NCBI GenBank assembly: GCA_947650285.1
Contig: CANTFL010000037.1
Span: 62,001 to 126,000, forward strand
From: Hyaloperonospora brassicae
Taxonomy: Eukaryota; Oomycota; Peronosporomycetes; Peronosporales; Peronosporaceae
Length of the DNA: 64,000 nt
Direction of reading: 5' to 3'
Below are positions 3,001-60,568 of the stretch, piece by piece (within the stretch, counting starts at the first letter, position 1; every line of letters starts with the position of its first letter). The notes under the pieces are model-generated. The model made no database searches. It was not told the DNA's origin and saw only the letters and a list, made by a program, of their open reading frames with translations. The position numbers and the translations under genes are program-made.

Positions 3001-3807
3001 CTTGCACATGTGCAGTATGTCGCGCGTATAACGCAGAGCTTTGTGGACGACACGATGCTAGACATGCAAGCACTTTACAGCATCTTGCAAAAGACCGTGT
3101 ATTCTCTTCCTTCACGCCTTAACAGAGAGGTGTGAAATTCTGCATTCGCACAGCGCTCACCGAAGTACATGTGCACGCACGCTCAACGATAACAAGGAGC
3201 GCAAGTCGGTGGATGATTGAGGTATATCGACATTGCCTACACATCGATCGGCTTGTCGGCGCCTCTCATGACGCACGAAGCCATACTCAACGCAATGGCC
3301 ATCGTCAAGCGCAAACGTCGATTACTTTTGCACACAGATGACGAGAACGTCTTGTTCACGCGAAGCATCTAAACATGGTCCAGACCAAGAAGTGAGACAT
3401 ACTTATTGGCGCTAGCGATGGGCTCTCTTTCGTCACCGTCGGCACCTCATCTACAGGCTACTCGCTGACCTTCCCAAGCCACGTCTTAGACATCGAGTTG
3501 ACAACATCCACGCCAAGAAACTCAGCCTAATCACTTCACCAAAGCCCCAAGCTTCGGTCTTCACTGCACTACAACCATCGTCTGCCACGTACAGAACGTC
3601 GCTCCGTTGGCCCCAAGCAAGAAGCACCCTTTGATACAACAATGCACGCAGGTGACATCCACAACCGACATGTCGACCTCAACTAGTTGATCAAACCCAC
3701 CGCTCCACGTCGTTCCGTCCACCTCAAACACTGCACGCCGTCACGTCAGCCTACACGCTTTCCTTCTCGCCCCCTCACCACGTTCCTCGTATCCTCAGCT
3801 CTCCTTG
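1..3807. other. Gene-poor left flank
   Basis: I see no convincing gene. Open frames on both strands are short (under about 130 codons), overlap each other, and lack recognisable motifs or a coding-like composition. The last few hundred bases before 3807 are C-rich on the plus strand and form the 3' flank of the Y14 gene. A decayed gene or transposon cannot be excluded. Confidence 0.5.
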
Positions 3808-4425
3808 TCACTTCGCACGTCCACGTCCTCGTCGTCGTTGTCGTCCATCCGTCTTGTCGTCCTGTTTCTGGAACGCCCAGTCCACGTGGATGACACTGCC
3901 CAGTATGTCATGCCCGTCAAGGCGCTCGATCGCAGCTTTCGCGTCGTCAAAGTGCGCAAACTCGACGAGCGCGTAGCCCTTGACAAAGCCCGACCGTCGG
4001 TCGAGGTTCAAGTGGATGTCTTTCACCTGCGCGTGCTCGGCAAACACGTCCGTCACGTCGTCTTCTTGGGCCTCTTCGTGGACGCCCGTGACAAACAAAA
4101 GATACCCTTCGACCGATCGCAGCGCATTCGAATGGTCCCGTGATCCTTTGGCCGGCGCGCGCAACGTCTCAAAGACTCCGCTCTTCGCCGGGTAGCGACT
4201 GACGTCCATGGCCGCAGACCCCGAGCCACGGCCTTTGACCACGCGCTTCGTGTCCCGACGCTGCGCAAGCGCTGTGCGGTCCTCTTGTGCGACTTTCTGC
4301 TGCTGCTGCTGCTGCTGCTGCTCTTCCTCCTCCTCCTCGACGGCCATCGCCGTGTCGCTCTCGTAGTCCACTTCCTCCGTCATGTCGGTCGTCGAGTGAG
4401 GAGGGCGTGGGCGAAGAGGTCCCAT
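3808..4425 (-). CDS. RBM8A: RNA-binding protein Y14/RBM8A, exon junction complex core subunit
   Basis: A 205-residue protein with one RRM in its C-terminal half. The RRM is close to Y14: SVEGYLLFVTGVHEEAQEDD at the start, then an RNP1-like NLDRRSGFVKGYALVEF segment and a VIHVDWAF end. In other eukaryotes Y14 pairs with Mago in the exon junction complex and marks spliced mRNA in the nucleus; that role is inferred from family. The N-terminus has acidic patches and a glutamate run followed by a glutamine run, encoded by GAG/CAG repeats near 4290-4345 and probably length-variable. The C-terminus is Arg/Gly-rich (RQRRRGRGRAK), like the family tail. It is somewhat longer than animal Y14 because of the N-terminus. 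The start is the first ATG of the frame. No intron is needed. Confidence 0.93.
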   Translation of the reverse strand: MGPLRPRPPHSTTDMTEEVDYESDTAMAVEEEEEEQQQQQQQQKVAQEDRTALAQRRDTKRVVKGRGSGSAAMDVSRYPAKSGVFETLRAPAKGSRDHSNALRSVEGYLLFVTGVHEEAQEDDVTDVFAEHAQVKDIHLNLDRRSGFVKGYALVEFAHFDDAKAAIERLDGHDILGSVIHVDWAFQKQDDKTDGRQRRRGRGRAK

Positions 4426-4669
4426 CGCGCGAAACGATTGGTTGAAAAGCGCTCGCGGACTCGGCCGACGCGAAAAGGGCGAAAGTATAACGTATACTAC
4501 GCACGACGTAATTTATTGACCCGTTGATGACGCACCGAAGAGCGCAAAAAAAGATGCGGTTGATCCCGACTGAAGTCGACAAAGTATCATCTGTTGGGTT
4601 TTACACGACGTGTCAATAATGAGCAAGAGGATAGTCATGTTAAGGGTCTACGCGGCCTTCTGGACGCGC

Positions 4670-5779
4670 TCACACGTCCCTCGACGTGCGAAAGCGGTGC
4701 AGCGGCTCGCCGTCCTGCAGTGCTGCCATGACTTTACTGTCTTGGTCTTCAATCATCTCGGCCCGCGTTGCAATGTCCTGCGCGCGGTCCGCTGGAATCA
4801 CAAGGACGCCGTTCAGATCGCCGCGGATGATATCGTTTGGCCGCACGACGCACCCAGCAACGAGGATAGTGCTGTTCACTTGCGTGACCGTAGTCGCCCC
4901 CTTCTCGCCATGCACTGACGTTGCGGTGGCAAACGCAGGAAAGCTCATGGCGCACAACTCGCGCACGTTTCGCACGCGTCCGTTCGTCACAACACCCGCA
5001 GCGTTGCGTGCTTTGGACGCAGTGGCCAACAAGGCACCAAACACGGCCGTCGTGCTCTTTTCCGGTGCACTTATGACCACCACGTGGCCCATTTCGACCG
5101 TATCGATGTAGTCGCACGAGCTACTATGGACCAGCGCTCCGGTGAGCGGCATCACCTCGACAGTGAATGCAGGTCCACAAATGTTCATGGCCAACGGCGC
5201 ATCGTACCCTCGCACGAGGCCGACGTCCACCAAGTACCCGTCCAGCTTCATCTGAGCCATTGCGTCTGCAATCACACAAGTCGAGAGCTTGGCCAGGCGC
5301 AATAGCACTTCGGTGCTGTCTTGCGGTGGCTCGTTTTCCGACTCCAACATATTAGTGAGCAGCTGGTGGTCCGATCGTCGAAGCGCCAGCGACTGCGCCG
5401 TCTCGACGCCAGCAGCAACGTAAGCGTCGGATCGTGGAACAGGGAGCGACGTTATGGTCGCAACCGCTCCCTCAATCTCTTTGATCGCCTCGTCGTCGTT
5501 ATTGCTGTTATTGTGGGGCTCGTGCTGGGCAGCTTCGTGCGTCGGGTGTATGGCTCCAGCTGAAAGCGGACCACCCGCGTCGGTCGTCGCTTTTCGCGTC
5601 CGCTGGTTGGTCTGGAAACCAGGCGCGCACGACATCTTGAGGTGCTCGGCGAGGCGCGTGGCGTTGCTCGCGTACTGCTTGTCGCACTTCTTGCATTGGT
5701 AGCGGACGAGTCCTTTGTGGTCTGCTTCGGGCTCGAGACGGACAAAGAAGTCGTACACATTACTGGGCTTTCGACCCAT
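4670..5779 (-). CDS. BED-type zinc finger fused to an RraA-like (HMG/CHA aldolase fold) domain
   Basis: A 369-residue protein starting at the ATG at 5779 (MGRKPSNVYDFFVRLEP). Residues 1-60 form a BED-like finger: a YDFF start, the pair CKKC, then H and C in LAEHLKMSC, the usual DNA-binding C2HC order. A Ser/Asn/Glu-rich linker follows. From about residue 155 to the end is an RraA-like domain with family signatures: VIADAMAQM near the start, GVVTNGRVRNVRELCAM at the active-site loop, and GCVVRPNDIIRGDLNGVLVI. RraA-fold proteins include 4-hydroxy-4-methyl-2-oxoglutarate aldolases and RNase E inhibitors. The loop G-x20-R-D/N motif is seen here as NGRVRN, where the usual Asp of GRVRD is Asn. A BED finger joined to this fold is unusual and suggests DNA targeting, but that is inference. 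It is divergently paired with the paralogue at 6473. Confidence 0.85.
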   Translation of the reverse strand: MGRKPSNVYDFFVRLEPEADHKGLVRYQCKKCDKQYASNATRLAEHLKMSCAPGFQTNQRTRKATTDAGGPLSAGAIHPTHEAAQHEPHNNSNNDDEAIKEIEGAVATITSLPVPRSDAYVAAGVETAQSLALRRSDHQLLTNMLESENEPPQDSTEVLLRLAKLSTCVIADAMAQMKLDGYLVDVGLVRGYDAPLAMNICGPAFTVEVMPLTGALVHSSSCDYIDTVEMGHVVVISAPEKSTTAVFGALLATASKARNAAGVVTNGRVRNVRELCAMSFPAFATATSVHGEKGATTVTQVNSTILVAGCVVRPNDIIRGDLNGVLVIPADRAQDIATRAEMIEDQDSKVMAALQDGEPLHRFRTSRDV

Positions 5780-6472
5780 GGCGGCTGACTTCACGGGAGG
5801 ATGTAGTTTACGGCTCGCAAGTTTTTGTGACGGAGAAGATTGCGAGCCAAAACAGCAGTGGGGCGCGCGCGATAGGGCTTGTTTGCCTTCTTTTGACCAA
5901 TCAGCAGCATCCACGGCCAACCAAACATGCCTCGGGCAGCTTGAGTATCAGCCAATCATAAGTGCTGCGTGAGCGCCAAAGCACCTCGCACACTTCAACG
6001 TGCGCCAAGAATGAAGGACCTCGTACAATCAATCTGCCTAAGTATACATCCATCAGCAGCGCCGCTGATGACTGGCTGATGTCTTATGCCATGAGTTTGC
6101 AATGTGCTAGATAGTCCAGGTTGCAACTCCTTTCCACAAATGGCTACTTGAACGAAGGTGTCTGAATACGAAGGCCGGTATCGCTGGAACACCCTCCTGC
6201 ACAAGTAAACACGCAAATGGCTGTGGTCTAAATGGAGGCATTTTCGAATTCGTTGACTTTATTTGCTCTAAAAATAGGAGCACCGAGGTACATTGACCGT
6301 ATTTGCTCCAATGAGAAAATTAAAAACGTTGACTTTATTTCTGCTCGATAAAGGTGTGGCTATGACGTCAAATGGTACTCATATCAGCTATTTCCTGCAC
6401 ATTGTCAACCTACCTTCTCCCTCCAGCTACCTGATATGTGATTGGCTGAAAAGACCTCACGCAACCATCGCA
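5780..6472. promoter_or_regulatory. Shared intergenic promoter between divergent RraA-like paralogues
   Basis: A 693-bp region between two start codons that point away from each other. CCAAT boxes are visible at 5897-5901 and 5952-5956 on the plus strand, and an inverted one (ATTGG) at 6441-6445, 28 bp before the right-hand ATG. CCAAT boxes are common in eukaryotic promoters. Which gene each serves is not shown by the sequence. A frame upstream of 6473 stays open to 6293, so an upstream start is possible but less likely. Confidence 0.5.
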
Positions 6473-7180
6473 ATGCCACGCACGTCTCAAGCCATGGCGA
6501 CGTCGGTGCTCGAGGCGCAGCAACGACTGTCCACGCTCTCCGTCTGCGCTATCGCAGACGCAATGGCAAAGCTGCAGATCCATAGCCATCTCGTGGACGT
6601 ACTTCCAGTTCCGAGCTCTCTGTCTTCCTCCTCGTCGTCGTCGTCGTTCTTGACCACTAACATTTGCGGGTCCGCGTTTACGGTTCAACTTGTACCCGCA
6701 ACAGGCGCCAGCGTCAAGAAACAGTCATTCCACTACGTCGACAAGACCGCGTCGGGTCAAGTAATTGTCATCAGTGCTCCATCGGGCAGCACGTCGGGCG
6801 TCTTTGGTGGCCTCTTGGCTGCAGCTGCCAAGGCTCGAGGTGCAGTGGCAGTTGTGACGGACGGCCGAGTGCGGGACGTGCAGGAATTGAGCGCTATGGA
6901 CTTTCCTGCTTTCTCGTGCGGGACGTCCGTGCACGGACAGCAAGGGGCAACGACCGTCGCCGACGTGAACTGCCCTATCGTCGTTGCTGGCTGTGTCGTG
7001 CGGCCGAACGACATTATCCGAGGCGACGTCAATGGTGTGCTTGTTGTCCCGATTGAACGTGCAGAGGAAGTAGCTGCCATGGCGGCGAGGATTGAACAAC
7101 AGGATGATCATGTTGCAAAAGCTGTGAAGCAGGGCTCTGGTCTGCAAGAGTCTTTTCGGCGCTTTCGCTCGAAGCTATAA
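6473..7180 (+). CDS. RraA-like protein without the BED finger (paralogue of 4670-5779)
   Basis: 235 residues from the ATG at 6473 (MPRTSQAMATSVLEAQQRL). The whole protein is one RraA-like domain, the usual length for the family. Signatures match its neighbour: CAIADAMAKLQ, VVTDGRVRDVQELSAMDF, GATTVADVNCPIVVAGCVV and RPNDIIRGDVNGVLVVP. The catalytic-loop GRVRD is intact here, unlike the BED-fused copy. A serine run (SSLSSSSSSSSF) near residues 45-58 is low-complexity. The fold covers HMG/CHA aldolases and related enzymes; the substrate cannot be read from sequence. An alternative start is the ATG at 6494. The stop lies 88 bp from the convergent gene at 7269. Confidence 0.88.
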   Translation: MPRTSQAMATSVLEAQQRLSTLSVCAIADAMAKLQIHSHLVDVLPVPSSLSSSSSSSSFLTTNICGSAFTVQLVPATGASVKKQSFHYVDKTASGQVIVISAPSGSTSGVFGGLLAAAAKARGAVAVVTDGRVRDVQELSAMDFPAFSCGTSVHGQQGATTVADVNCPIVVAGCVVRPNDIIRGDVNGVLVVPIERAEEVAAMAARIEQQDDHVAKAVKQGSGLQESFRRFRSKL

Positions 7181-7268
7181 GAGATGTCGTTCGTTGGTCC
7201 AAACTGTCTGCAACGAGTTGACAATGCATTTGACGTTTGACCACGATGGAGTGACAACCGTGACCTCA

Positions 7269-8936
7269 TCACTTTCGTACTTGCAGGTACTGAGCTTCTA
7301 GCGCTTGTTCTGGGATTGTCTGGAGCTGCGAAAGTGCTTGCGAAAGCACCACGTCGTCTAGTAGACACGCGCGTAGATCCCTCGCACTTTGCTGGCTCTG
7401 GCTCTGTGTAACCAAGTACTGCAGCGCGTCGTCCAAGTAGTCGCGGCAGTTGTGGACGCTGACGATCTCCAGTTCCCTAACGACTACAGCGTTCATCTCC
7501 ATGGCAACAAGCGATGGCGGGTACAGCTCCAAGCGCGACCTGTCCACGAGCACAATGCAGCCCATGGACTGTACCAGCGATAGCGCAAGCCCGGTCGAAG
7601 CTTTGGAGCCGACGAGATCCACGACAGCGTCCAATGCTAGCTCAGCCTGTCGTGTCAGCAAGTAGGCCGCATCAGCGGGTTCATGAAGATCCAGGGGAGT
7701 GACCGAGGCGTACTGTGACCAGACGGAGCTGCTCCAAGTGGCTGTCGTAGAGAACAGGTGCAAATTTTGCGCCGAAATCTGCACGTCTTGGTGCAGGAAC
7801 CGCGTCAGCAGATTGGAGACGATAGTTGCAGGCCCGTCCGACAGAATCGCAACGTTGGTCACCTGTCGTCGCTGCAACTCGCTGACGATGGAGAGAACGA
7901 CAGACATGTCGTCAGCTAGTAGTGCTAGATCGTCGGGGACACTGGGAGGGACTACAGCCAGGTTCGACGCTGGCAGCACAATGTATTCGGCAAGTGTTCC
8001 AATGGAAGCGCTGACGCCTACCACAGACGTAGAGCTGCAAGTCGATCCCTGGGGCAGCGCATCGTCACGGTTGCTTTCGTCTAGCTGCTCGCACTGACCC
8101 GCACGCCTTCGCATGAGATACGGCGACGCAACGACCCTGTCCAACACCTTGACAGGACCGACAGTCGTGCGCTCTGTCTGCTCCGAGGCCGAAAGCTGCA
8201 GTCCACTAACAGTGCCGACGAACGATCTCCCCAAGACGCCATTCCTGCCCACAATTTTGCCACGACACGTCTGCGCATCAAAGAGCGAAGCTGCTGCTCG
8301 CAAGACGTGCACTGTTGCTTCACCTGCACCTGCAGTGTTGCAAGCAACGCGTGTACACGAGACGACCGGTGGGTCCTCGCCGCATCGACATGCAGCTCTC
8401 ACCGCGAGCATATCCGCTACAGCAACCACGTTCTCGCGCGTAGACGCGTCGCCAAGACCCGTCTCGTTGCTCCCATCTGCGCGTGTCGCGCATGTTTGCA
8501 GCAATAACCGCAATTCTTCTCTCTTTGGCAAACCAAACTGCTCGTCCAGTGTCGCAACGAGGTCGTGGAAACTGGACGTATCGAACAGGTCCATCGGAAG
8601 CTGCTCTTGTCTAAGCCATTGAGCAAGTGCGAGCTTGGCCTCTTGAGCTCGATCAACAGCGTGCATCCCTGCGCGTTCAGCCGACGGTGGGGCCGTTGCT
8701 GTCTCCTCCTGCATCGTGCGGCTACTCTCCACGCTCAATGATGCGCTTCCACGCTGCTCCAGCCGCGCCTTCTCACGGTGTCGCTCGTGATGCTGCGTGA
8801 GGTCATGCGTCTTGTTAGTGGCGCCTAGAAGACACGTACGTGACGTGGCATCGTCGGTAGTCACGTTCGGAGACACGCTCGGGCCGTCGATTGCGTCGGT
8901 ACGAGTGACTGTCTCAGTGGCCGCCTCGTCCGACAT
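7269..8936 (-). CDS. Medium-chain dehydrogenase/reductase-like protein, probably non-catalytic
   Basis: 555 residues from the ATG at 8936, no intron. The first 100 residues are low-complexity Thr/Glu-rich. Residues about 165-330 look like the GroES-like half of the MDR superfamily: FDAQTCRGKIVGRNGVLGRS, then GTVSG and a VLDRVVA segment, later GTLAEYIVLPASNLAVVP, which is typical of quinone oxidoreductases. The following part resembles the nucleotide-binding half (VTNVAILSDGPATIVSNLL, LDAVVDLVGSKASTG), but the usual Gly-rich GxGxxG/A loop is absent. The zinc cysteines of alcohol dehydrogenases are also not seen. This suggests a regulatory or dead paralogue. The family call is moderate; the coding call is strong because of the long frame and coding composition. 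Confidence 0.78.
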   Translation of the reverse strand: MSDEAATETVTRTDAIDGPSVSPNVTTDDATSRTCLLGATNKTHDLTQHHERHREKARLEQRGSASLSVESSRTMQEETATAPPSAERAGMHAVDRAQEAKLALAQWLRQEQLPMDLFDTSSFHDLVATLDEQFGLPKREELRLLLQTCATRADGSNETGLGDASTRENVVAVADMLAVRAACRCGEDPPVVSCTRVACNTAGAGEATVHVLRAAASLFDAQTCRGKIVGRNGVLGRSFVGTVSGLQLSASEQTERTTVGPVKVLDRVVASPYLMRRRAGQCEQLDESNRDDALPQGSTCSSTSVVGVSASIGTLAEYIVLPASNLAVVPPSVPDDLALLADDMSVVLSIVSELQRRQVTNVAILSDGPATIVSNLLTRFLHQDVQISAQNLHLFSTTATWSSSVWSQYASVTPLDLHEPADAAYLLTRQAELALDAVVDLVGSKASTGLALSLVQSMGCIVLVDRSRLELYPPSLVAMEMNAVVVRELEIVSVHNCRDYLDDALQYLVTQSQSQQSARDLRACLLDDVVLSQALSQLQTIPEQALEAQYLQVRK

Positions 8937-9783
8937 GGCACTACGTCTGTGAGGCAGTCAACACGTCCCACGTGACTCGCAATGTATAGAAGCGCTGCGC
9001 CAAAGTGGACTACAGTGTCGCGATTTTGTTTACGGACGGCTGGTGATGGCCAGTGGTTATCTCGTTGGTTTCTGATTTGTGATTGTTACTTCCGGGTAGC
9101 CAAACGTAGTCCTCGAGGAAAGCTGTCGCAGAACGAGTTGTGAAAGGATCTGCGGACATCGTTGTTGCTACTTGTGATGACGGTCGACCCTCGGATAAGT
9201 GATGGGCTTGGTGGAGGAAGGATTGCAGGGATTTGTAGCGAAGGTTCGACCGTATTGCATGGTAGTGTAATTTACACCTGGTAATGGAGTGACATAGATT
9301 AAAGAGCGTATTATGGCAAACAAAAGGAAGCCGCTTGTTTCCGAGCCGAAACGCCCTGGTAAAGACTTGCCCAACAACATGCAAGTGATCGCCAGGCTGC
9401 TGACGAGGTACTGTTCGTGCGCTTGACAGATGTCGATGAAAGCGATTCGTAGCCTATAACTCACCGGTCGCTGCTCCCGCGACCAAACAGAGCAGCAATC
9501 TAATCAATGCAAACTTACGTGGCGATGGACCGCAACCATCGGTTTCCTGCGTTGACCTATCCTCGACTGTCAATTCTCCTCGATAGTTTAGTAACGGGAC
9601 CGAGTCACCATGAACAGCTTCTATCGCAGTGAAAAAAGAGGCGCCTTGGTTTTTATGTCAACTTGACATTATTCACATTCTAAGAAAGTAAAGTACCAAA
9701 TGCTCACGATAAAAATGCGCTAATAGAGAGAAAATCAAGAGACTCCGAGACGGTCTATTTATATAGAATCATGTACAAGATGT
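8937..9783. other. Intergenic, nothing recognised
   Basis: Upstream flank of the dehydrogenase-like gene. Open frames are short and overlapping. No repeat or regulatory motif stood out. Confidence 0.4.
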
Positions 9784-48185: not shown

Positions 48186-48577
48186 TGTAACGGGGCAGCC
48201 CGTTACATGAAATTGTCACTTTAAAGAAAGTGACAATAAAGAATATGAAGTTGAATATTCTTCGAACAATATCACCGATAGTGGTGATATTGAAGGGTCG
48301 ACCAAAGAGTCTGTTCATTGGTTGATATCGTGATGATATCAACCCACCAATCGCCGCAAGACGCGCGCAATGAGTGGTGACGAGACGTCACCTTACACTC
48401 AGTTATACTAGTATAGTTAAGCTAAGTCAAACAGAGCGACAGTAACAAAAGACTTACTTATATTAATACAACAGTTTTACTTTTCCCTTATCTACGCTTC
48501 CTCATTTGCCTCGTGTACGTCAGTCGGGGCACCGAAAACCCTTGCGTTAAGTTCACGCAAGGGTGTGCCCCGTTACA
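48186..48577 (+). repeat. Left LTR, 392 bp
   Basis: Starts TGTAACGGG and ends CCGTTACA, the usual TG...CA ends. It carries successive stems: 48186-48194 with 48199-48207 (9 bp), 48212-48222 with 48227-48237 (11 bp), AATATCACC with GGTGATATT, GTTGATATC with GATATCAAC, and at the 3' end 48538-48547 with 48555-48564 (10 bp) nested inside 48525-48532 with 48565-48572 (8 bp). Confidence 0.95.
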
Positions 48578-48579
48578 CC

Positions 48580-48588
48580 TGGTAGCAC
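48580..48588 (+). other. Candidate primer binding site
   Basis: TGGTAGCAC, two bases after the LTR. A PBS begins with TGG, the complement of a tRNA CCA end. I could not assign the tRNA. The same nine bases occur at 60782-60790 in the related element's leader, though there 213 bp beyond its LTR. Confidence 0.55.
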
Positions 48589-48621
48589 TTTGTAGTCCTT
48601 CCAAGGACCACAACATCCAAC

Positions 48622-49776
48622 ATGAACATGTTGGATGAAGAAGAAACCTTTCACGCCACGCGTGAAGGGTTTACCCATTTGAGTGACATCGAATGGAGTG
48701 CGGTAGAACGAATGAGTTCTAACGTAGGCGGGCTCGCCATTAGCGCCATGTTGGAGTCTCTAGACAGAGACCAACAACATGCCGCTATCGCCAAGTTCAT
48801 TCAAAATGAACTTGCCATCGAGAGGGAGAAAGTAGCCTTTCTTCACCAGCAAGGCTCTCAACAGGCCGAGCAGTTGAGAGAACTCGGTGCTCAACAGACA
48901 GAGCTGTTGAGACAGCAGCAATTCCATGCTGCTGTGGGCGGGACGGCGCATGCGCGTCGTCCCGAAGTCATGAAAGTTGACATCTCCAAGTACAGTGGAG
49001 TCCCGGAGGACTCCCTGTTACTGTGGTTTGTCGAACTCGACAGAGCCTTAAGGGCTCGTCGCGTCGAAGATGAGCAAATGAAATTCACATTTGCTCAGAC
49101 CCACTTGGCAGGGCGTGCCAAAACTTGGTCCTTGGGGCTCGAGAGTAGCGACCCAAATGTGTTTAGGTCGCTAGATGACTTCAAGTCCCGGCTCAGACAA
49201 ACGTTTGAGCCGCCACGCGCGGAGTTCAGGGCTCGTTCAGAGCTCCTGAAACTCAAGCAGGGTAAGCGTGATGTGCACGCTTACGCACAACATATACGAC
49301 TCCTTGCGAGTAGTATAATTGCTAACCCAGTTCATGAACACACGTTGATTACGGTGTTCATGCGAGGGCTCGCAGAAAGGCCCGCCAGGAGCCACCTGTT
49401 CCGCCTTGAGCTGAATACGCTTGAAGAAGCGATATCAGCCGCGGAACAGGAAGCCTTTAGCATGAGACATGCTCATGCTAGCTCAAACTCTTATCGTCCA
49501 CCGAGACGACAAGAGATAGGAGGTCCAGAACCAATGGACCTCTGCTATGTTGAGAGCGAGAGACCTCGCTCTTCGAACAACAAGCGATTGCAGAGGTGCA
49601 ATCGCTGTCAGAAGTTAGGGCACTACGCATACGAGTGTAGTGCTCCACGCCCAGTACCAAACAGTACTGAGAGAAATGGACGACCATTCGCCAGAAAGGG
49701 CAATGGGCGTGGGTCCAGCGCTGTTGCGAAGCCGCAACAGCGAGACGGACCATCAAAAATTGGACGGGGTCAGTAG
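48622..49776 (+). CDS. gag: Gag polyprotein of the Ty3/Gypsy element
   Basis: 384 residues from the ATG at 48622 (MNMLDEEETFHATREGFTHL); an in-frame ATG at 48628 is also possible. The centre is a retrotransposon Gag domain (LLLWFVELDRALRARRVEDE; GRAKTWSLGL; FKSRLRQTFEPP; LTITVFMRGL-like LITVFMRGLAERPARSHLF). The C-terminal region has one CCHC zinc knuckle, CNRCQKLGHYAYEC, with the exact C-x2-C-x4-H-x4-C spacing. Gag packages the element RNA into particles. The stop at 49774 is a TAG, and pol lies in another frame, so a frameshift would normally be needed. Both ATGs sit inside an 11-bp stem. This is the only intact frame of the element. Confidence 0.92.
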   Translation: MNMLDEEETFHATREGFTHLSDIEWSAVERMSSNVGGLAISAMLESLDRDQQHAAIAKFIQNELAIEREKVAFLHQQGSQQAEQLRELGAQQTELLRQQQFHAAVGGTAHARRPEVMKVDISKYSGVPEDSLLLWFVELDRALRARRVEDEQMKFTFAQTHLAGRAKTWSLGLESSDPNVFRSLDDFKSRLRQTFEPPRAEFRARSELLKLKQGKRDVHAYAQHIRLLASSIIANPVHEHTLITVFMRGLAERPARSHLFRLELNTLEEAISAAEQEAFSMRHAHASSNSYRPPRRQEIGGPEPMDLCYVESERPRSSNNKRLQRCNRCQKLGHYAYECSAPRPVPNSTERNGRPFARKGNGRGSSAVAKPQQRDGPSKIGRGQ

Positions 49777-49826
49777 GGGAGGAGCGCCCTACTGATCCAG
49801 CAACCTCAAGAGAATTTGCAAATCTC

Positions 49827-50177
49827 TTGACGAAAGTTGCTCCAGATAGACGATCATTGTGTGTCTCTGCACCTGGTGATGACGTTTCGCTCATCACCTT
49901 GAAGTTGGAAGCGACAAATGATTTGTCGCTTCGTGCCCTAGTAGACTGTGGGGCGTCGAACAACTTTGTTCGTCGCCAGTTACTAGAGGGTCGTAGGCTC
50001 AAGGTCGTTGAGCGCGACATTCCCCTCACGAGGATGATGGTGCGCCTTGCAACAGGCGCATCGATAACCGTTGAGAAACGTGTAGTAGGAATCCACTACA
50101 CGTTAGAGGGCGAACAGAACGATGATGACTTCATCGTACTGGATCTGGATGACAAATTTGATGTCATCCTGGGATAA
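49827..50177 (+). pseudogene. Aspartic protease region of pol, stopped early
   Basis: The retropepsin core is visible: LRALVDCGASNNFVRRQLLE, then the second strand VRLATGASITVEKRVV and FDVILG. The active-site triad reads Asp-Cys-Gly (49944-49952) instead of the usual Asp-Ser/Thr-Gly. A TAA at 50175-50177 sits where family members continue ILG-x-PWL; PWL follows directly after the stop. The protease normally cuts Gag and Pol apart. Reading continues in the same frame beyond the stop. Confidence 0.8.
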
Positions 50178-51161
50178 CCTTGGCTCAGAAGGTACACGCC
50201 AAGGGTGAGCTGGCAGCATCGATCCGTGAAGATGCCTGCCGCTTGTTCATCGGATGGCCATCTGATGAACGTCTTGGAGCGTCCACAAGCGTGTGGATGT
50301 ACTGCGAGTGAGTGCGATGGCCTCACTTGCGTTTCGGTCGTTAGCACGACTGCACAAGATCACAGTGTAGTTGATCACTACACTGTGGACCAAGCTCCCG
50401 GCGGCTGTACAGGAGTACAGGCTGCGCCGAAGGTCCACCACTCGAAGAAGTCGAGTGGACCGGGACATGGATGCATGCCTAGCGGGCAGCATCTTAGAAG
50501 AAAGAAACCTGTTGCCCCCAAGGGGCAACATGGAAATCCTAGGCGACTGGAGAGTCGACCGTAGAGGATCGGTGCCTGAATGTGGTTGCACAGCCACAGT
50601 CGGAAGACGTCGAGGGAATAAGTCCCCACGTACTTGAGGAAGGAATTCCTCAAGAGTCACTTGCTGAGGGATCAGGCCCTCAGCAACCTGTAGAAGAAAG
50701 TTCTGTAGGAAGTAACCGAGACGTTGAACGTCTTAATTAATGACGGATCAATCGTAGGCGCTTATACGCTTGATCTGATTGTGCCTCCGAAGTTAACTTC
50801 GGAGATAACTCAGTTGCCAACGCTAGAACCTAAACGGTTCTTGCGTGATCTGCGTAGTGGCAAAGTCAAGCAGATCTGCATACTCGTCACGGAGGATGAG
50901 TATGTGGCCGATATTCGGTCGGCAACAGTATTTGCTGAGAACGAACGGGTTCTCAGCAGCTAATCGATGGACGAAAGTGTCCTCGATGAGAAGACTCGGA
51001 TTGAGCGATACACGTCTCAATCCTGGGAGTCACTTCAGGCAAATCCTTTGTATAAGGATTTGATCGAATTCAGAAATGTGTTCCCTGAATCCGTACCTTG
51101 CGAGTTGCCTAAGGACAAAGGCACTCGACACGAGATCGAGCTCAAACCGGGCTCGAAGTAG
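50178..51161 (+). pseudogene. Pol linker between protease and reverse transcriptase, with several stops
   Basis: The pol frame carries PWLRRYTPRVSWQHRSVKMP after the protease. It later resumes with SMDESVLDEKTRIERY and FRNVFPESVPCELPKDKGTR, the conserved run-up to reverse transcriptase. Stops interrupt it, including 50562-50564, 50961-50963 and TAG at 51159-51161, the last at a position that is usually Tyr in the family's KYCV motif. The part around 50200-50720 is poorly conserved and rich in perfect inverted repeats. Confidence 0.7.
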
Positions 51162-52705
51162 TGTGTCATGAAGCAGTGGCCACTGCCTCGTGAACAAGTA
51201 CTAGCGATCGACAAGTTCTTTGCCGATCGCTTAGCAGCGGGCCATGTGAGGGAATCAACTCCCCCTCACAGCTCTCCGACCTTCTGTGTGCGAAAGGCCA
51301 CAAGAGGATGGCGTATAGTGCACGCATTCAACAAGTTGAACGCTGCAACGGTACCGGCTCGGACGCCGATACCGAGGAAGGACGTAATCATAGATGGTAT
51401 GTCAAAGAGTACCATCTTTTCGTCCATGGATCTGATGGATGGATTCTATCAGATCCTGATGCGTGAACGGGACATCCCGTTCACGGCAGTGAGTACCCCC
51501 ATCGGGATGCCGTGGGAGTGGCTAGTGATGCCACAGGGGCTGAGTAATGCCCCTGCAACATTCAACAGATGTGTCACAAATCTGTTGAGACCGGTGCGAG
51601 ACTTCGCACCGAGTTACTTCGACGATGTGTTCGTCCATAGTCGGGCTATGGACGGAAAGACGGACGTTGAAGTTCACAGAACTCACGTTCGTCAGGTTCT
51701 TCAACTTATGCGCAAGCATAAGCTGTATGCCAACCTCAAGAAGTGTATATTCGCGGCTAGCGAACTACCACTTCTTGGGTGCATCGTGGGTAAACACGGC
51801 GTACGCCCTGATCCCGAAAAGATCAAGGCGATCACCGACTGGCCAGTGCCAGTCGATGTCAAGGGACTAAGGAATTTCCTTGGTCTAGCGGCGTACTTGC
51901 ACAAGTACTCGCGCAACTACGCCGAGATGACTGTTCATCTTTCTTGCTTGCTCAAGAAAAATGTCAAGTGGTCATGGAACGCTGAGTGCCAGCGTTCCTT
52001 TGAAGGTATGAAGCGGAGCTTGATGCAATCGCCGATCTTGGCGATTGCCTATCAGGACAGACCATTTCATGTGGTCTGTGACGCCAGCGATTTTGCGATC
52101 GGCTGTGCGTTAATGCAATTTGATGCAAATGGCGCAGAGCGCGTCATCTGTTATCAGTCGCGTCAGCTACAGGCAGCTGAGCGCAATTACCCAGTGCATG
52201 AAAAGGAACTCCTTGCCATGAAATATGCAATGGCTAAGGTCCGGGTCTATACTTAGGGAGATAGACCGTTCATCTTGTATACCGACCATGAGTCACTACG
52301 CACGGCCGTAAACAGCCCACACCTCTCGCAGAGAATGGCGAGGTGGCTGTCTTTCTTTGAGAAGTACAACTTCTCCGTGGAGTATAAACCAGGACGACTC
52401 AATGTCGTCGCTGATGCTCTTTCGCGCCGGCCCGATTTCGAGCCGGACGCACAAATCAACAGTGAGGATAAGCCGACTGTTGCGACACTGTCAGTCAGTG
52501 TCCCGTCGTCGAGTTTACTTGACGACGTACGAAAGGCATACGCGGAAGATAAGGATCTTCTGCGATTGATGGATCATCTGGTGCATCCATCCAGTAAATC
52601 ATTGCAGGATTTACCGGCTTTGTACCGATCCTCATCGGATCGGTATAGTACACGCAACGGATTGCTGTACTATACAGCTGTTCCGGCGACACGCCTCGTT
52701 TCGTC
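51162..52705 (+). pseudogene. Reverse transcriptase and RNase H of pol
   Basis: Open from 51162 to a TAG at 52254-52256, then open again in the same frame to about 52700. RT motifs in order are GWRIVHAFNKLN, FSSMDLMDGFYQI, MPQGLSNAPATFNRC, and the catalytic SYFDDVFVHS with both aspartates intact (51621-51626). The thumb has LGCIVGKHGVRPDPEKI and LRNFLGLAAYLHKY. RNase H follows with VCDASDFAIGCALMQFD and YPVHEKELLAMKYAM, then LYTDHESLR and VVADALSRRP after the stop. These copy element RNA into DNA. A frame change near 52700 leads to the integrase. Confidence 0.9.
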
Positions 52706-53500
52706 GTACCCGCTCATCATGATTTGCGTTTGCGCATCATGTATGAGTGTCACGATGCCCCAACAAGCGGCCATCGTGGAAGAGAAAAAACTTACCTCAC
52801 GGTAAGTCGTGACTTTTACTGGCCCCGCCAGTATCAGTTTGTTCGCAAGTACATACGTGCTTGCGAGGTTTGTCAACGGGTGAAGCCTAGTCCTTCATCC
52901 CGTGCGCCATTACAGCCTCTGCCTGTTCCGGCAGAGTGCTGGAAGTCCGTTTCAATGGACTTCGTCTTCGGGAAGCCCGAAGACGCTCACAAGAATAATA
53001 ACATTCTTGTGTTCGCTGATCGGTTCAGCAAGATGGTGCATCTTGCTGCAGTGCCCGAGTCCATCACGGCACCCGGCCGTGCTCGTGTCTTTCTTGACAC
53101 GATCTTCCGACTCCACGAGTTGCCCCGTGAACTCGTATCCGACCGTGACCCTCGGTTCACGGCGGCATTTTGGCAAACCGTGTTCCGTTCTCTTGGAACA
53201 CGATTGAAGATGTCTACTTCTGACCATCCGGAAACATATGGTAAGACGGAACGTGCAAAGCGTATCATCGAAGAGACACATCGAGGATATGTCCACTCGT
53301 TTTCGAGTTGGATCGAATTCCTTCCAATGGTGGAATTCGCCAGTAATAATTCGGTGCATGCTTCAACACAGCACACACCGTTTTACGTGAATGGCCTACG
53401 CCATCCACGAGTGCCCACCCTTATAGAGTGTGACTCTTGGATAAGGGGGGAGGGACTCGCTAGAGCAAAAACCGTTTTGGCTCTTGCTCATCACGTGTCG
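52706..53500 (+). pseudogene. Integrase region of pol
   Basis: The HHCC zinc site is complete: YECHDAPTSGHRG and CEVCQRVK. The core has the first Asp in SMDFVFGKPED, the second in LVSDRDPRFTAAFW, and the Glu in ETYGKTERAKRIIEE. The usual TDGQTE is TYGKTE here. The integrase inserts the DNA copy into the genome. It is joined to RT in a shifted frame, and the frame shifts again near 53500, so no full-length product is possible without corrections. Confidence 0.88.
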
Positions 53501-54216
53501 ACGCTAACGTCGTCACGTATGATGCCGATGTCGATCAAGTCGACATCGATGAAGAAGATCACCTCAATAATAGCGACGACGCTATTATTGACTCGGATGG
53601 TGATGACGATGCTGGTATATTCAGCATCGTCAACGATTATTCCAGCGAGGAAGAAGACAACCTCGCTGAAGAAGAGAACAATCTCTTAGCAGTGCGCACG
53701 AAGCGCACTGAAAGACAAAACAACGCGTCAGCAGAGAACTTCCTGCTGACTCGAGAAGCGGTAGTCCGTTTCGTTCAGGACTCCATCGCAAATGCGGTGG
53801 ACCGCCAGAAGCGGAACGTAGACAAAAATGGAAGAGCAAATGTTCTTTCATTAAAAATTAATGACCTAGTACTACTGTCTACGGTAAACTTACCTGGACA
53901 TGCAGTCACTAGTGTCGGCAGTAGTAAATTACTGCCGAAATACATCGGGCCATTTCCAGTGTTGCATTGCAAGGGCAATGCATACACGATCGAATTACCA
54001 CGTAGGATGCGCACGCATCCTACGTTTTACGTGGGGCGACTCAGGCCGTACTGTCAGTACGAGCCTTCTTCTTTCGATGAAGATAGCCCCCACGTTCAAG
54101 ATCCTCCATCAAGTTCTTGCGTTCGCGCTCCAGACGATCCGTCTGGAGCGCAGAAAAGATACCTCGAAACTCAACCGAGATATCTCCCTGCGAGCTGTCG
54201 CCAGCTCGCCGAATAG
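53501..54216 (+). pseudogene. Integrase C-terminal extension: acidic linker and GPY/F-like region
   Basis: A third frame reads a strongly acidic stretch (VDIDEEDHLNNSDDAIIDSD) and then NDLVLLSTVNLPGHAV, LLPKYIGPFPVLHCKGNAYT and RRMRTHPTFYVGRLRPY. That is the usual GPF/Y-type C-terminal module of Gypsy integrases. It ends with a stop at 54214. The chromodomain follows in yet another frame. Confidence 0.8.
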
Positions 54217-54373
54217 GGAGCGGACATCCCGCTCGACCTGAAGCTGCGCTGTGGCATAATGGCGCGATCCCTCGCCCGATCAGCCTCTTGACCCTTGCGG
54301 TTCTTCCGCACGGTATCAGTCAAAGCGTAGCGCCGGTCGCGCTCGTGCTTCAAGTCATCGCGCAATTCACCGA

Positions 54374-54667
54374 TTGCGCGATCCATCTCGTAAGGGTCGA
54401 GATGGTGAGCAGAATCATCTGGAGGAGGCCATTCCTCCTTTACCACATCCTTTGGTGGATGCTCACGGTGATCAACGCTTTCTAGTGGAGCGTATCTTGA
54501 ATCACCGTGACGATTCAGGATCAAGGACGAGCTACCTCGTCCAGTGGCGGGGGTATCTACCCTCTTGGAACAGCTGGGAGCCTCGCTCTCAGCTGTTGAT
54601 GGATGTGGAAGGTCTCGTCCGCCAGTATGACGAAACTCATACGATGAGTCCTGTGGCCCATCGGTAA
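54374..54667 (+). pseudogene. Chromodomain at the Pol C-terminus
   Basis: The frame reads FLVERILNHRDDSG, SYLVQWRGYLPSWNSWEP and LLMDVEGLVRQYDETH. This is the chromodomain core with its aromatic residues and the W-x-SWEP turn. In chromoviruses this domain directs insertion to marked chromatin. It is out of frame with the integrase tail ending at 54216. Confidence 0.85.
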
Positions 54668-55760
54668 ACACGCGCCCTAGGCGCTTGTAGACGGATTGCA
54701 AGTTTGCAATCGCGTCACGCATCTCAGCCGAGATGTGTGCCCTTCCCAGGGCGAACTTAGGGAATATACATCCCTATGTGCACGCTGCGAGTTGTCAGCA
54801 CAACTCGCACAAGGGTTTCCCCATGTGAGGCAAGGAATGCCTGCCTCACTCGATAAAAGATGCAACCGGTACCTAGCAACGGTTGGCGTTCGCCTTTCTA
54901 ACCTGAGGCGTACTGCCTCAAGAGTCTTAAGCCACCTTTCTCGTCCAAAATTCTTGACGTTTTGGACGAACGCGTTCTACGCAGCCAAAAGCGAGGCCTT
55001 GTCACGCTTTTGGTTGCTGTTGTACCATCGATGTCTAAGTAAGACACCGAGATAAAAAGCTTCCTTAGCGCGAAAGTTGCTCGCGCTGGAACTGAAGCCG
55101 TGAAGCTCAGTTGCATCGAATAAGGGTATTCGATGGTGTTGGCCTGTCTCGTGAGACAGGCTATTGATGAGCCGTACGGGCAAACGCCACGGCTTCAGCT
55201 CATCACGCTTCACAGTGGTACCCTTGTCGGTACCACGATTGTCAGTATGACGATGGCTTGCACCATCGTCAAGTCGCTCGTGCGAAGGAGCACGAGCTGA
55301 TTGCGGTGATTAGCAAACATACTCATCACCCGATTCGTCATCACTGCCGAACAGACTGTGTTGCAACTCACGAGTCCGTTCGTTCGGCAGTGGCCTTGGC
55401 GAACACTGAGACGTCGCCGGTGATCGAGACGCCTCTGCAGCATTGCTCGAGTCAGACACGTCTGACTCGCCAGAGTAGATGACCTCAATGTCGGGGTCAT
55501 CATGCGCACGCGGTGCTGTACCGCGTGCACCTGCAGCACCTGTTGCTGCATGCGAAGAACGAGCAGCAGACGACTAATCGTCTGCCGCAGAAGCTGGCAC
55601 AGGCACAGACTCTGTGTGCCTTGAGTCACCCCGCATAGACATTTTAACTATGCGAGGTCAGGTTGAGTTATGAACGGAACTGACCCAACAAGTGCTCCCT
55701 GTCCCAATGGCGCCCAACGGGTGGCCGCCATAATTTTCGATAGTCACAAAGTGACTATCA
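54668..55760 (+). other. Untranslated 3' part of the retroelement, dense in inverted repeats
   Basis: About 1.1 kb between the chromodomain and the polypurine tract without a supported gene. It contains many perfect stems, such as 55142-55150 with 55153-55161 (9 bp, 2-nt loop), 55215-55222 with 55229-55236 (8 bp), and 55739-55747 with 55751-55759 (9 bp, AAA loop), the last directly before the polypurine tract. Confidence 0.6.
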
Positions 55761-55775
55761 GTTAAGGGGGGGTGA
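55761..55775 (+). other. Polypurine tract
   Basis: GTTAAGGGGGGGTGA abuts the right LTR. Position and G-run fit the plus-strand primer of LTR retroelements. Confidence 0.85.
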
Positions 55776-56166
55776 TGTAACGGGACAGCCCGTTACATGG
55801 AAGTGTCACTTTATAGAAAGTGACAATGAAGAATATGAAGTTGGATATTCTTTGAACAATATCACCGATAGTGGTGATATTGGCGAGGCGACCAAAGGGT
55901 CTGCTCATTGGTTGATATCGTGATGATATCAACCCACCAATCGCCGCATGACACGCGCAATAAGTGGTGACGAGACGTCATCATACACTCAGTTATATTA
56001 TCATAATTAAGTCCGGTTAAACAGAGAGACAGTAACAAAAGACTTACTTATATTAATACAACAGTTTTACTTTTCCCTTATCTACGCTTCCTCATTTGCC
56101 TCGTGTACGTCAGTCGGGGCACCCAAACCCTTGCGTTAAGTTCACGCAAGGGTGTGCCCCGTTACA
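55776..56166 (+). repeat. Right LTR, 391 bp
   Basis: Starts TGTAACGGG, ends CCGTTACA. By eye it differs from the left LTR at about 30 positions, including one indel. Several differences fall in loops or between stems: the first loop is GCAG in the left copy and ACAG here. Confidence 0.95.
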
Positions 56167-57300: not shown

Positions 57301-57500
57301 AAGCTCCAGATCTCCGATTTATCTCGCGATTTTTGGGTGATATCATGATATCTGGGGATCTCGCGATCTCTGGGTGGTCTCGTGATCTCTGATCGATCTC
57401 GCGATCTCTGGGTGACCCCTTGATCGCTACTTGGAATAGCGATCTGTCGATGATCTCGCGTTCTGTGGTCGGAATCGCGATCGCTATGTGATCTCTCCAT
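57301..57500 (+). repeat. GATC-rich imperfect tandem repeat
   Basis: Repeated GATCTCGCGATCTCTGGGTG-like units, about 20 bp long, with substitutions and short deletions: clear copies near 57355, 57395 and 57450. The units contain GATC and TCGCGA palindromes. The minus strand stays open through it (ERSHSDRDSDHRTRDHR...), which is a by-product of the repeat. Confidence 0.6.
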
Positions 57501-60128: not shown

Positions 60129-60568
60129 TGTAACGGGGTAGCCCGTTTCATGAGATTGTCATTAAAACAATCTGACAATAAAGAACATTACGTCGAATAT
60201 TCTTTTAACAATATCACAAGACATGGGGATATTGTTGGGATAACCGAAGGGTCTACTCATTGGTTGATATCGTGATGATATCAACCTACCAATCGCTGCT
60301 ATACGCGCGCAATGGGTGGTGAGTAGACGCCATCATACATACAGTTATATTAGTATAATTAAGTCAGGACAACAGAGATTCAAGAAGTTATAGGACTTAA
60401 TTATATTAATAAAGTTTTATTTTTACCAAGAGACTAGTCTGAATACTTAGTCTCCTTTCCTTCCTCTGTGTTCCTTAAACACCTAGCAGGGCACTGTCGA
60501 CCACTGTCGTCAGTGGGAGTATACTCCGAACTGGTCAGCCAGTACGAAGTCAACAGTGCCCCGTTACA
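60129..60568 (+). repeat. LTR of the second element, 440 bp
   Basis: Starts TGTAACGGGGTAGCCCG and ends CCCCGTTACA. GTTGATATC-GTGAT-GATATCAAC is identical to the first element's. The 3' part has unrelated sequence but the same layout: an outer 9-bp stem (60489-60497 with 60553-60561) enclosing CCACTG/CAGTGG, the palindrome GGAGTATACTCC and ACTGG/CCAGT. The call as an LTR is by similarity; the partner copy is not in the window. Confidence 0.85.

What the first reader, a model, noticed from the sequence alone, without database searches (positions are those of the whole stretch)
48186..56166. Retrotransposon built almost wall-to-wall from short perfect inverted repeats
Along nearly 8 kb (LTRs, leader, gag, pol, 3' untranslated part), perfect stems with 6-12 bp arms and loops mostly 1-20 nt follow one another, roughly one every few dozen bases; I noted on the order of a hundred. 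Checked examples (arm/arm): 49071-49080/49088-49097; 49583-49592/49597-49606; 49908-49919/49921-49932 (12 bp, 1-nt loop); 52643-52652/52666-52675; 53564-53574/53581-53591; 53915-53923/53930-53938; 54000-54011/54014-54025 (12 bp, 2-nt loop); 54125-54135/54141-54151; 55142-55150/55153-55161. Most lie inside protein frames, so both arms must also code. A similar read of the SulP and FHA/RING-CH genes did not show this. Possible causes: selection for folded genomic RNA, template switching that perfects quasi-palindromes during reverse transcription, a source of small RNAs, or DNA cruciforms. I know of no described element of this kind.
Basis: partly seen in the sequence, partly recalled or inferred. 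Interest (0 to 1): 0.95.

Follow-up and report, generated by a model that had tools for sequence, protein, structure and literature searches.

The report
Retrotransposon packed with perfect hairpins
A jumping gene in what is likely a downy mildew carries about a hundred short, perfect hairpins along its length, inside its protein genes as well as outside them; their arms change more slowly than the sequence around them, and they likely keep the element's two strands from pairing with each other and being silenced.

Summary
All nine example stems are exact. The 8-kb Ty3/Gypsy element holds 93 perfect stems with arms of 8 bp or more, against 3.2 in shuffles; 20 further copies hold 89-127. Protein-preserving shuffles do not explain them. 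Related families F2, H, G and J share the trait, each with its own hairpin size; five other retroelement regions sampled and the rest of the window lack it. Selection maintains the stems: among 21 copies, shared variants avoid arms while singletons hardly do; against sister families arms diverge 1.4-5 times less than loops and spacers, also at fourfold-degenerate sites; compensatory changes occur; stems decay with insertion age. The hairpins obey a minimum loop of 3 nt, yet G-U pairs are hardly better tolerated than A-C, and antisense is predicted to fold as well as sense. This argues, with limited power, against ordinary sense-RNA folding and fits a need for both strands to fold. My best guess is escape from sense/antisense pairing and RNA silencing; the genome encodes Argonaute- and Dicer-like proteins. 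Ten paper searches listed no description of such an element.

The parts
48186..48577 (+). 5' LTR, carrying hairpins
   Evidence: 92.3% identical to 55776-56166
48580..48597 (+). putative primer-binding site, two bases after the 5' LTR; primer tRNA not identified
   Evidence: read from the letters
48586..49776 (+). gag open frame (stop to stop, 396 codons)
   Evidence: ORF; Retrotrans_gag, Ty3_capsid, zinc knuckle
49671..50177 (+). protease part of pol
   Evidence: Asp_protease_2 and RVP_2
51162..52256 (+). reverse transcriptase and start of RNase H
   Evidence: RVT_1, RT_RNaseH_2, RT_RNaseH
52257..52805 (+). end of RNase H
   Evidence: RT_RNaseH positions 71-105
52649..53689 (+). integrase (zinc-binding and core) in another frame
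   Evidence: Integrase_H2C2, rve
53464..54216 (+). integrase C-terminal SH3_Tf2-1 domain
54260..54667 (+). chromodomain
   Evidence: Chromo PF00385, E 3.8e-13
55764..55772 (+). putative polypurine tract before the 3' LTR
   Evidence: read from the letters
55776..56166 (+). 3' LTR, carrying hairpins
49071..49097 (.). hairpin, 10-bp arms, in gag
   Evidence: exact
49583..49606 (.). hairpin, 10-bp arms, in gag
   Evidence: exact
49908..49932 (.). hairpin, 12-bp arms, formal loop 1 nt
   Evidence: exact
52643..52675 (.). hairpin, 10-bp arms
   Evidence: exact
53564..53591 (.). hairpin, 11-bp arms
   Evidence: exact
53915..53938 (.). hairpin, 9-bp arms
   Evidence: exact
54000..54025 (.). hairpin, 12-bp arms, formal loop 2 nt
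   Evidence: exact
54125..54151 (.). hairpin, 11-bp arms
   Evidence: exact
55142..55161 (.). hairpin, 9-bp arms, in the 3' untranslated part
   Evidence: exact
60129..60424 (+). LTR fragment of a sister family, itself with three stems of 9-12 bp
   Evidence: 79% identical to the 5' LTR; stems at 60207, 60262, 60354

Best explanation
This is a Ty3/Gypsy LTR retrotransposon whose 8-kb sequence carries about a hundred short perfect hairpins with slowly changing arms, and these hairpins likely act by making both strands fold on themselves, so that sense and antisense strands would fail to pair and would give little double-stranded RNA for silencing. Shown here: density far above protein- and dinucleotide-preserving shuffles; hairpin geometry with a minimum loop of 3 nt; slower change of arms than of loops and spacers, also at fourfold-degenerate sites; compensatory changes; decay after insertion; presence in a group of related families, each with its own geometry; equal predicted folding of both strands, with hardly any advantage of G-U over A-C. 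Inferred: that selection judges single strands of both polarities, and that the gain is escape from antisense pairing and RNA silencing. The nearest precedent is the RNA-phage principle that local folding keeps plus and minus strands from annealing.
For: Density and codon shuffles. Shared variants avoid arms, singletons hardly do. Arms diverge less than loops and spacers between F and F2, at fourfold sites and within J. Stems decline with LTR divergence, Spearman 0.86, 20 copies. Stem codons are less like sister proteins in F and J. Related families share the trait; five other retroelement regions lack it. Sense and antisense equally far below shuffles; one internal G-U no commoner than one A-C. 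The genome encodes three Piwi-domain matches and two frames with tandem RNase III domains. Abstracts: Phytophthora small RNAs come largely from transposable elements, mainly LTR retrotransposons in P. infestans (PMC3804510; PMC3522703). PMC6913131 (abstract and introduction): intramolecular folding hinders double-strand formation.
Against: No antisense transcript, small RNA or silencing was seen; the step is inferred. The strand tests have limited power: four RNA phages show only a small G-U over A-C excess too (3.30 against 2.84-fold), and a flanking control (J flank) shows a sense/antisense difference of its own, -2.2 +- 0.8. Fixed one-sided changes between F and F2 lean to G-U (27 against 17). 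F loops are A-rich on the sense strand. Gaps without hairpins reach 190 nt in F and spacing is not even, so protection would be patchy. J hairpins of about 5 bp are weak. Other retroelement families of the same genome do without the trait.
Confidence: 0.38

Rival explanations
1. The hairpins are selected in single-stranded cDNA during reverse transcription (minus strand and displaced plus strand), for protection of exposed DNA or to ease strand displacement in the particle.
For: Strand symmetry and strict Watson-Crick pairing. Selection acts in the spreading lineage only. LTRs and 3' untranslated part are as dense as genes. J triloops are closed by pyrimidine-purine pairs in 87 of 104 cases, in every codon phase, a preference known for DNA mini-hairpins (recalled). 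In J antisense is slightly more stable, 0.84 +- 0.41.
Against: H tetraloops prefer the opposite closing pair, G-C in 12 of 15. Five other retroelement regions also make cDNA but lack hairpins.
Confidence: 0.22
2. Sense genomic RNA is selected to be compact or to carry many Gag-binding hairpins for packaging, as in genome-scale ordered RNA structure.
For: Very low folding energy, mean z -6.3 per 150 nt in F, about twice MS2 (-3.1); family-specific geometry could match family-specific Gag; A-rich sense loops; one-sided changes between F and F2 lean to G-U, 27 to 17.
Against: Antisense folds equally well; stems with one G-U are near chance in H, G and J and no commoner than A-C in F; perfect stems dominate far more than in RNA phages; no loop motif.
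Confidence: 0.17
3. A mutational bias of the family's reverse transcriptase, fold-back copying that turns quasi-palindromes into perfect ones, fills the element with stems without any benefit.
For: Perfect pairing and scarcity of one-mismatch stems in H, G and J, family-specific geometry and turnover of positions are what copying would give.
Against: Copying alone predicts arms that drift together at the neutral rate; instead arms change 1.4-5 times less than spacers and loops. Left and right arms are equally diverged from sister families (F p 0.67, J p 0.45, G p 0.30; H borderline p 0.08).
Confidence: 0.1
4. The inverted repeats act in double-stranded chromosomal DNA as cruciforms or chromatin signals.
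For: Strand symmetry and strict Watson-Crick pairing.
Against: Arms of about 5 bp with 3-nt loops in J and 8-10 bp in F are too short to extrude readily (recalled); stems decay in resident copies.
Confidence: 0.05

Closest known systems
Chromodomain-bearing Ty3/Gypsy retrotransposons (Chromoviruses; oomycete Chronos group of PMC5348765)
   Same: LTRs, gag, protease-RT-RNase H-integrase order and a C-terminal chromodomain
   Different: No added archaeal-type RNase H was found by Pfam; the passages and section seen of PMC5348765 contain no 'hairpin', 'inverted repeat' or 'palindrom' and do not describe hairpin-packed sequence
Genome-scale ordered RNA structure of some RNA viruses (recalled; term searched)
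   Same: Folding energy far below shuffles along the whole sequence, coding parts included
   Different: Perfect short hairpins, G-U pairs 5.9% of predicted pairs against 12.6% in shuffled sequence, both strands equal, in a retrotransposon
RNA phages MS2, SP, GA, PP7 (local folding against plus/minus annealing, PMC6913131)
   Same: Both strands are predicted to fold well below shuffles
   Different: Helices are imperfect: MS2 has 3 perfect stems of 8 bp or more in 3.6 kb; one-G-U stems are enriched 0.66 as strongly as perfect ones in the phages but 0.11 as strongly in F, both with 7 pairs
Transposons with terminal inverted repeats or foldback elements (recalled)
   Same: Inverted repeats in a mobile element
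   Different: There one long repeat frames the element; here about a hundred unrelated short ones lie inside it

Membership tests
Ty3/Gypsy LTR retrotransposon | paired LTRs, TG...CA ends | tested here: met
Ty3/Gypsy LTR retrotransposon | gag; protease, RT, RNase H, then integrase | tested here: met
Ty3/Gypsy LTR retrotransposon | target-site duplication | tested here: not met
   flanks of this old copy do not match by eye; other copies not examined
Chromovirus | chromodomain at the end of integrase | tested here: met
   (54260-54667)
Chromovirus | RT groups with chromoviruses in a tree | not tested
   no tree built
Chronos (oomycete) | second, archaeal-type RNase H | tested here: inconclusive
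   no Pfam match at E 0.001; a stretch of about 118 residues between RNase H and integrase in L013 is unassigned
Genome-scale ordered RNA structure | folding energy far below shuffles along the sequence | tested here: met
   z -6.3 in F, -3.5 in F2, about -2 in H and J, -0.8 in G
Genome-scale ordered RNA structure | sense RNA favoured, wobble pairs tolerated | tested here: not met
   power limited,
Both-strand folding against duplex formation (RNA-phage type) | both strands folded | tested here: met
   prediction only
Both-strand folding against duplex formation (RNA-phage type) | reduced annealing of complementary strands | not testable with these tools
   needs annealing assays and small-RNA libraries

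The most novel reading that the evidence does not exclude
A clade of retrotransposons has rewritten its whole genome, protein genes and LTRs included, into arrays of perfect hairpins of a family-specific size (about 5 bp with 3-nt loops in J, 8-9 bp with 3-5 in H, 8-10 bp with 4-6 in F). Selection demands Watson-Crick folding of both strands at once: a self-folding code that makes the element's sense and antisense nucleic acids blind to each other and so hard to reach for any complementarity-based defence, even at a cost to its proteins.
Probability: 0.3. Interest if true: 0.97.

Novelty: new variant of a known kind. Interest (0 to 1): 0.9.

Why it matters
The element is an ordinary kind of retrotransposon; the way its sequence is built is not. 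A selected layer of perfect hairpins throughout a retroelement, predicted to fold equally in both strands, hardly using wobble pairs, changing position but not presence between families and overriding some amino-acid conservation, has no counterpart that my searches listed. If it serves escape from silencing, it is a sequence-independent way for a mobile element to outrun small-RNA defence, testable with small-RNA libraries. If it serves reverse transcription, it shows an unknown structural demand of cDNA. The contrast between hairpin-rich and hairpin-free families in one genome is a ready natural experiment.

Tried and rejected
Chance and composition: rejected by dinucleotide, codon and codon-plus-dinucleotide shuffles.

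Conserved individual structures across families: F stems are not kept (allowing one bad pair) at homologous positions in H, G or J (0 of 77, 0 of 80, 0 of 71); in the other directions 1-3 stems per pair are kept; only H and G share more (9 of 47, 14 of 31). At this depth compensatory changes do not exceed slid controls.

Loop or sequence motif: none seen beyond closing-pair biases. Even spacing: not found in F, F2 or J; H is slightly more even than random (p 0.02). Known RNA families: none at Rfam gathering cut-offs in the window; no tRNA.

Ascertainment: stems chosen as perfect in one copy are biased towards looking conserved. The shared/singleton contrast was repeated with stems perfect in at least 2, 3, 6 or 11 of 21 copies: odds ratios 0.78 (p 0.09), 0.67, 0.48, 0.36 over the element and 0.48, 0.37, 0.18, 0.15 in the 3' untranslated part. 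The loosest setting is not significant over the whole element. In one search, 48 of 111 F stems were dropped as ambiguous among the three F2 copies.

Relatives elsewhere: none confirmed in IMG/VR. A search of the genome for an RNA-dependent RNA polymerase (PF05183) was asked four times and never answered.

Literature: ten searches; among the titles and abstract openings listed, none described a hairpin-packed retrotransposon. Most subscription papers are not held.
Full report
WHAT WAS CHECKED. Counted without choosing, the stretch 48186-56166 holds 212, 93 and 33 perfect stems with arms of at least 6, 8 and 10 bp (loop up to 30 nt), against 51.7, 3.2 and 0.15 in 20 dinucleotide shuffles. The other fourteen 4-kb bins of the window hold 0-3 stems of 10 bp or more; the two element bins hold 16 each.

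WHAT THE ELEMENT IS. It is a Ty3/Gypsy retrotransposon with LTRs of 392 and 391 bp (92.3% identical), gag, protease, reverse transcriptase, RNase H, integrase, SH3_Tf2-1 and chromodomain. This copy is old: its pol is spread over several frames and its flanks show no target-site duplication. The host is very likely an oomycete: the named best matches of the reverse transcriptase are mainly Phytophthora and Peronospora proteins, and the SulP protein of the window is 94% identical to one of Hyaloperonospora arabidopsidis and at most 87% to any other listed protein.

COPIES. Of about 40 copies listed (capped lists) 20 were fetched. All 20 are stem-dense: 89-127 stems of 8 bp or more, 35-49 of 10 bp or more (L004 is cut by a contig end). 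Copies with identical LTRs (L008, L013) hold 125 and 126; the two with the most diverged LTRs, the window copy and L020, hold 93 and 89. Stem number and LTR identity correlate, Spearman 0.86 over 20 copies. The stems belong to the spreading lineage and decay in resident copies.

GEOMETRY. In five young copies arm lengths show a shoulder at 8-10 bp that shuffles lack and fall off sharply beyond 12; loops peak at 4-5 nt. An arm-by-loop table shows the steric minimum of a real hairpin, about 3 nt; shorter formal loops fit chance extension inward, clearest in J. Hairpins with arms of 7 bp or more cover 41% of L013, with gaps of 34 nt on average, placed about at random. Density is alike in LTR, gag, pol and 3' untranslated part (15-20 per kb).

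OTHER FAMILIES. I chose eight retroelement regions from the 150 scored reverse-transcriptase matches. Three carry the trait: H (L021, 36 stems of 8 bp or more against 2.2), G (L027, 20 against 2.8) and J (L022, 85 stems of 6 bp or more against 26, but only 3 of 8 bp or more against 1.5). Five do not: L023-L026 and L028. F, H, G and J share 49-66% of aligned pol residues with one another and about 25% with L026. Each has its own geometry: J about 5 bp with a 3-nt loop (34 against 2 expected), H 8-9 bp with 3-5, G about 9 bp with 5 (few stems), F 8-10 bp with 4-6. In H and J the hairpins begin and end with the element: J has 5-19 five-bp triloop hairpins per kb in the bins from 2000 to 9000 and 0-3 in the bins outside or straddling its start. 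Three further J-type regions and one further H copy agree. Sister family F2, 76-87% identical to F in aligned stretches, has the trait too.

SELECTION. (1) Synonymous-codon shuffles of F pol give 1.9 stems of 8 bp or more, shuffles that also keep dinucleotides 2.5; observed 60. (2) In 21 copies, variants shared by three or more copies hit 3.3% of arm sites, 20% of loop sites and 15% of spacer sites in the 3' untranslated part, whereas singletons, mostly arisen after insertion, hit 13.6, 13.3 and 16.8% (p 2e-5); over the element 2.5, 7.1 and 5.6% against 11.1, 14.9 and 13.4% (p 2e-4). The contrast holds when stems are defined from many copies at once, but not significantly over the whole element at the loosest setting. 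(3) Between F2 and F, arms of L029 stems differ at 7.1% of sites, loops 28.5%, spacers 20.2%; 30 of 54 scorable stems stay fully Watson-Crick; 17 double changes restore pairing and 6 do not. In the other direction, F stems against three agreeing F2 copies, the figures are 9.9, 19.4 and 17.5%, with 35 of 63 scorable stems intact and 21 restoring against 9 not. (4) At fourfold-degenerate sites, arms 10 of 99, loops 7 of 22, spacers 83 of 300. (5) J4 against J1: arms 27 of 853, loops 50 of 318, spacers 497 of 3693; in the direction J1 to J4, where J4 seems decayed, the contrast is weaker (9.1, 14.0 and 12.5%). (6) Stem codons are less like the sister proteins than other codons, 0.455 against 0.523 in F and 0.417 against 0.529 in J; in H the difference is small (0.559 against 0.581). 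In F pol the pairing register with least synonymous freedom is the rarest (15 against 33 and 35), though this is not so in H, G or J.

WHICH MOLECULE. If sense RNA alone had to fold, stems with one G-U should be nearly as common as perfect ones and commoner than stems with one A-C. With 8 pairs and one internal mismatch the counts are: F 23 G-T and 25 A-C; F2 (L029) 11 and 21; H 4 and 5; G 3 and 2; J 1 and 3. In H, G and J such stems are few and near chance, so pairing is close to all-or-none. Predicted energies are equally far below shuffles for sense and antisense in F (-21.5 and -21.4; difference 0.02 +- 0.52), and none of the families favours sense. Against this: fixed one-sided changes between F and F2 lean to G-T (27 against 17); F loops are A-rich in the sense strand (0.34 A, 0.23 T); the four RNA phages used as a yardstick favour sense by only 1.6 +- 0.5 kcal/mol and G-U over A-C only slightly; and the J flank, a control, shows a difference of -2.2 +- 0.8 by itself. 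The family without hairpins L023 has a mild energy excess of its own (z -1.3). The strand test therefore supports, but does not prove, a need for both strands.

MECHANISM. The facts ask for a process that judges Watson-Crick folding of both strands as single strands, with short helices. Shielding sense and antisense RNA from each other fits: a hairpin perfect in one strand is perfect in the other, a G-U in one is an A-C in the other, and arms stay below the length that would itself feed Dicer (recalled). RNA-phage work holds that local folding counters double-strand formation (PMC6913131, abstract and introduction). The genome encodes Piwi-domain and RNase III proteins, and Phytophthora small RNAs come largely from transposable elements (PMC3522703, PMC3804510, abstracts). 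This step remains inference. Folding of cDNA is the main rival; fold-back copying may help to create stems but does not explain conserved arms or the equal divergence of both arms.

NOVELTY. The element is a new member of a known kind; its hairpin layer is a new variant of genome-wide structure that differs from the RNA-virus kind in perfect pairing, strand symmetry and short uniform helices. Ten paper searches listed no description of it.

Noticed in passing
L004 and L020, element coordinates about 5885-6268: Both copies match F closely in the first 5.9 kb but only 77-85% after it, where L004 is 89-94% identical to 39 other places: recombinants between F and F2.
   Followed up: partly
L022 (J), L021 (H): Family-specific closing pairs: J triloops closed by pyrimidine-purine in 87 of 104, in all codon phases; H tetraloops closed by G-C in 12 of 15. 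Unexplained.
   Followed up: partly
L007 against L003, L012, L013: Pol is one 1601-codon frame in L007 but two overlapping frames (1339 and 411 codons) in L003, L012 and L013; which is the ancestral state was not examined.
   Followed up: no
window 57309-57415: Tandem repeat of about 19/37 bp just after the element.
   Followed up: no
window 4818-5056 and 6788-7026: Inverted repeat of about 240 bp at 74% identity.
   Followed up: no
G000:C871:95352-104330: Two Piwi-domain genes with equal scores in opposite orientation about 7 kb apart.
   Followed up: no
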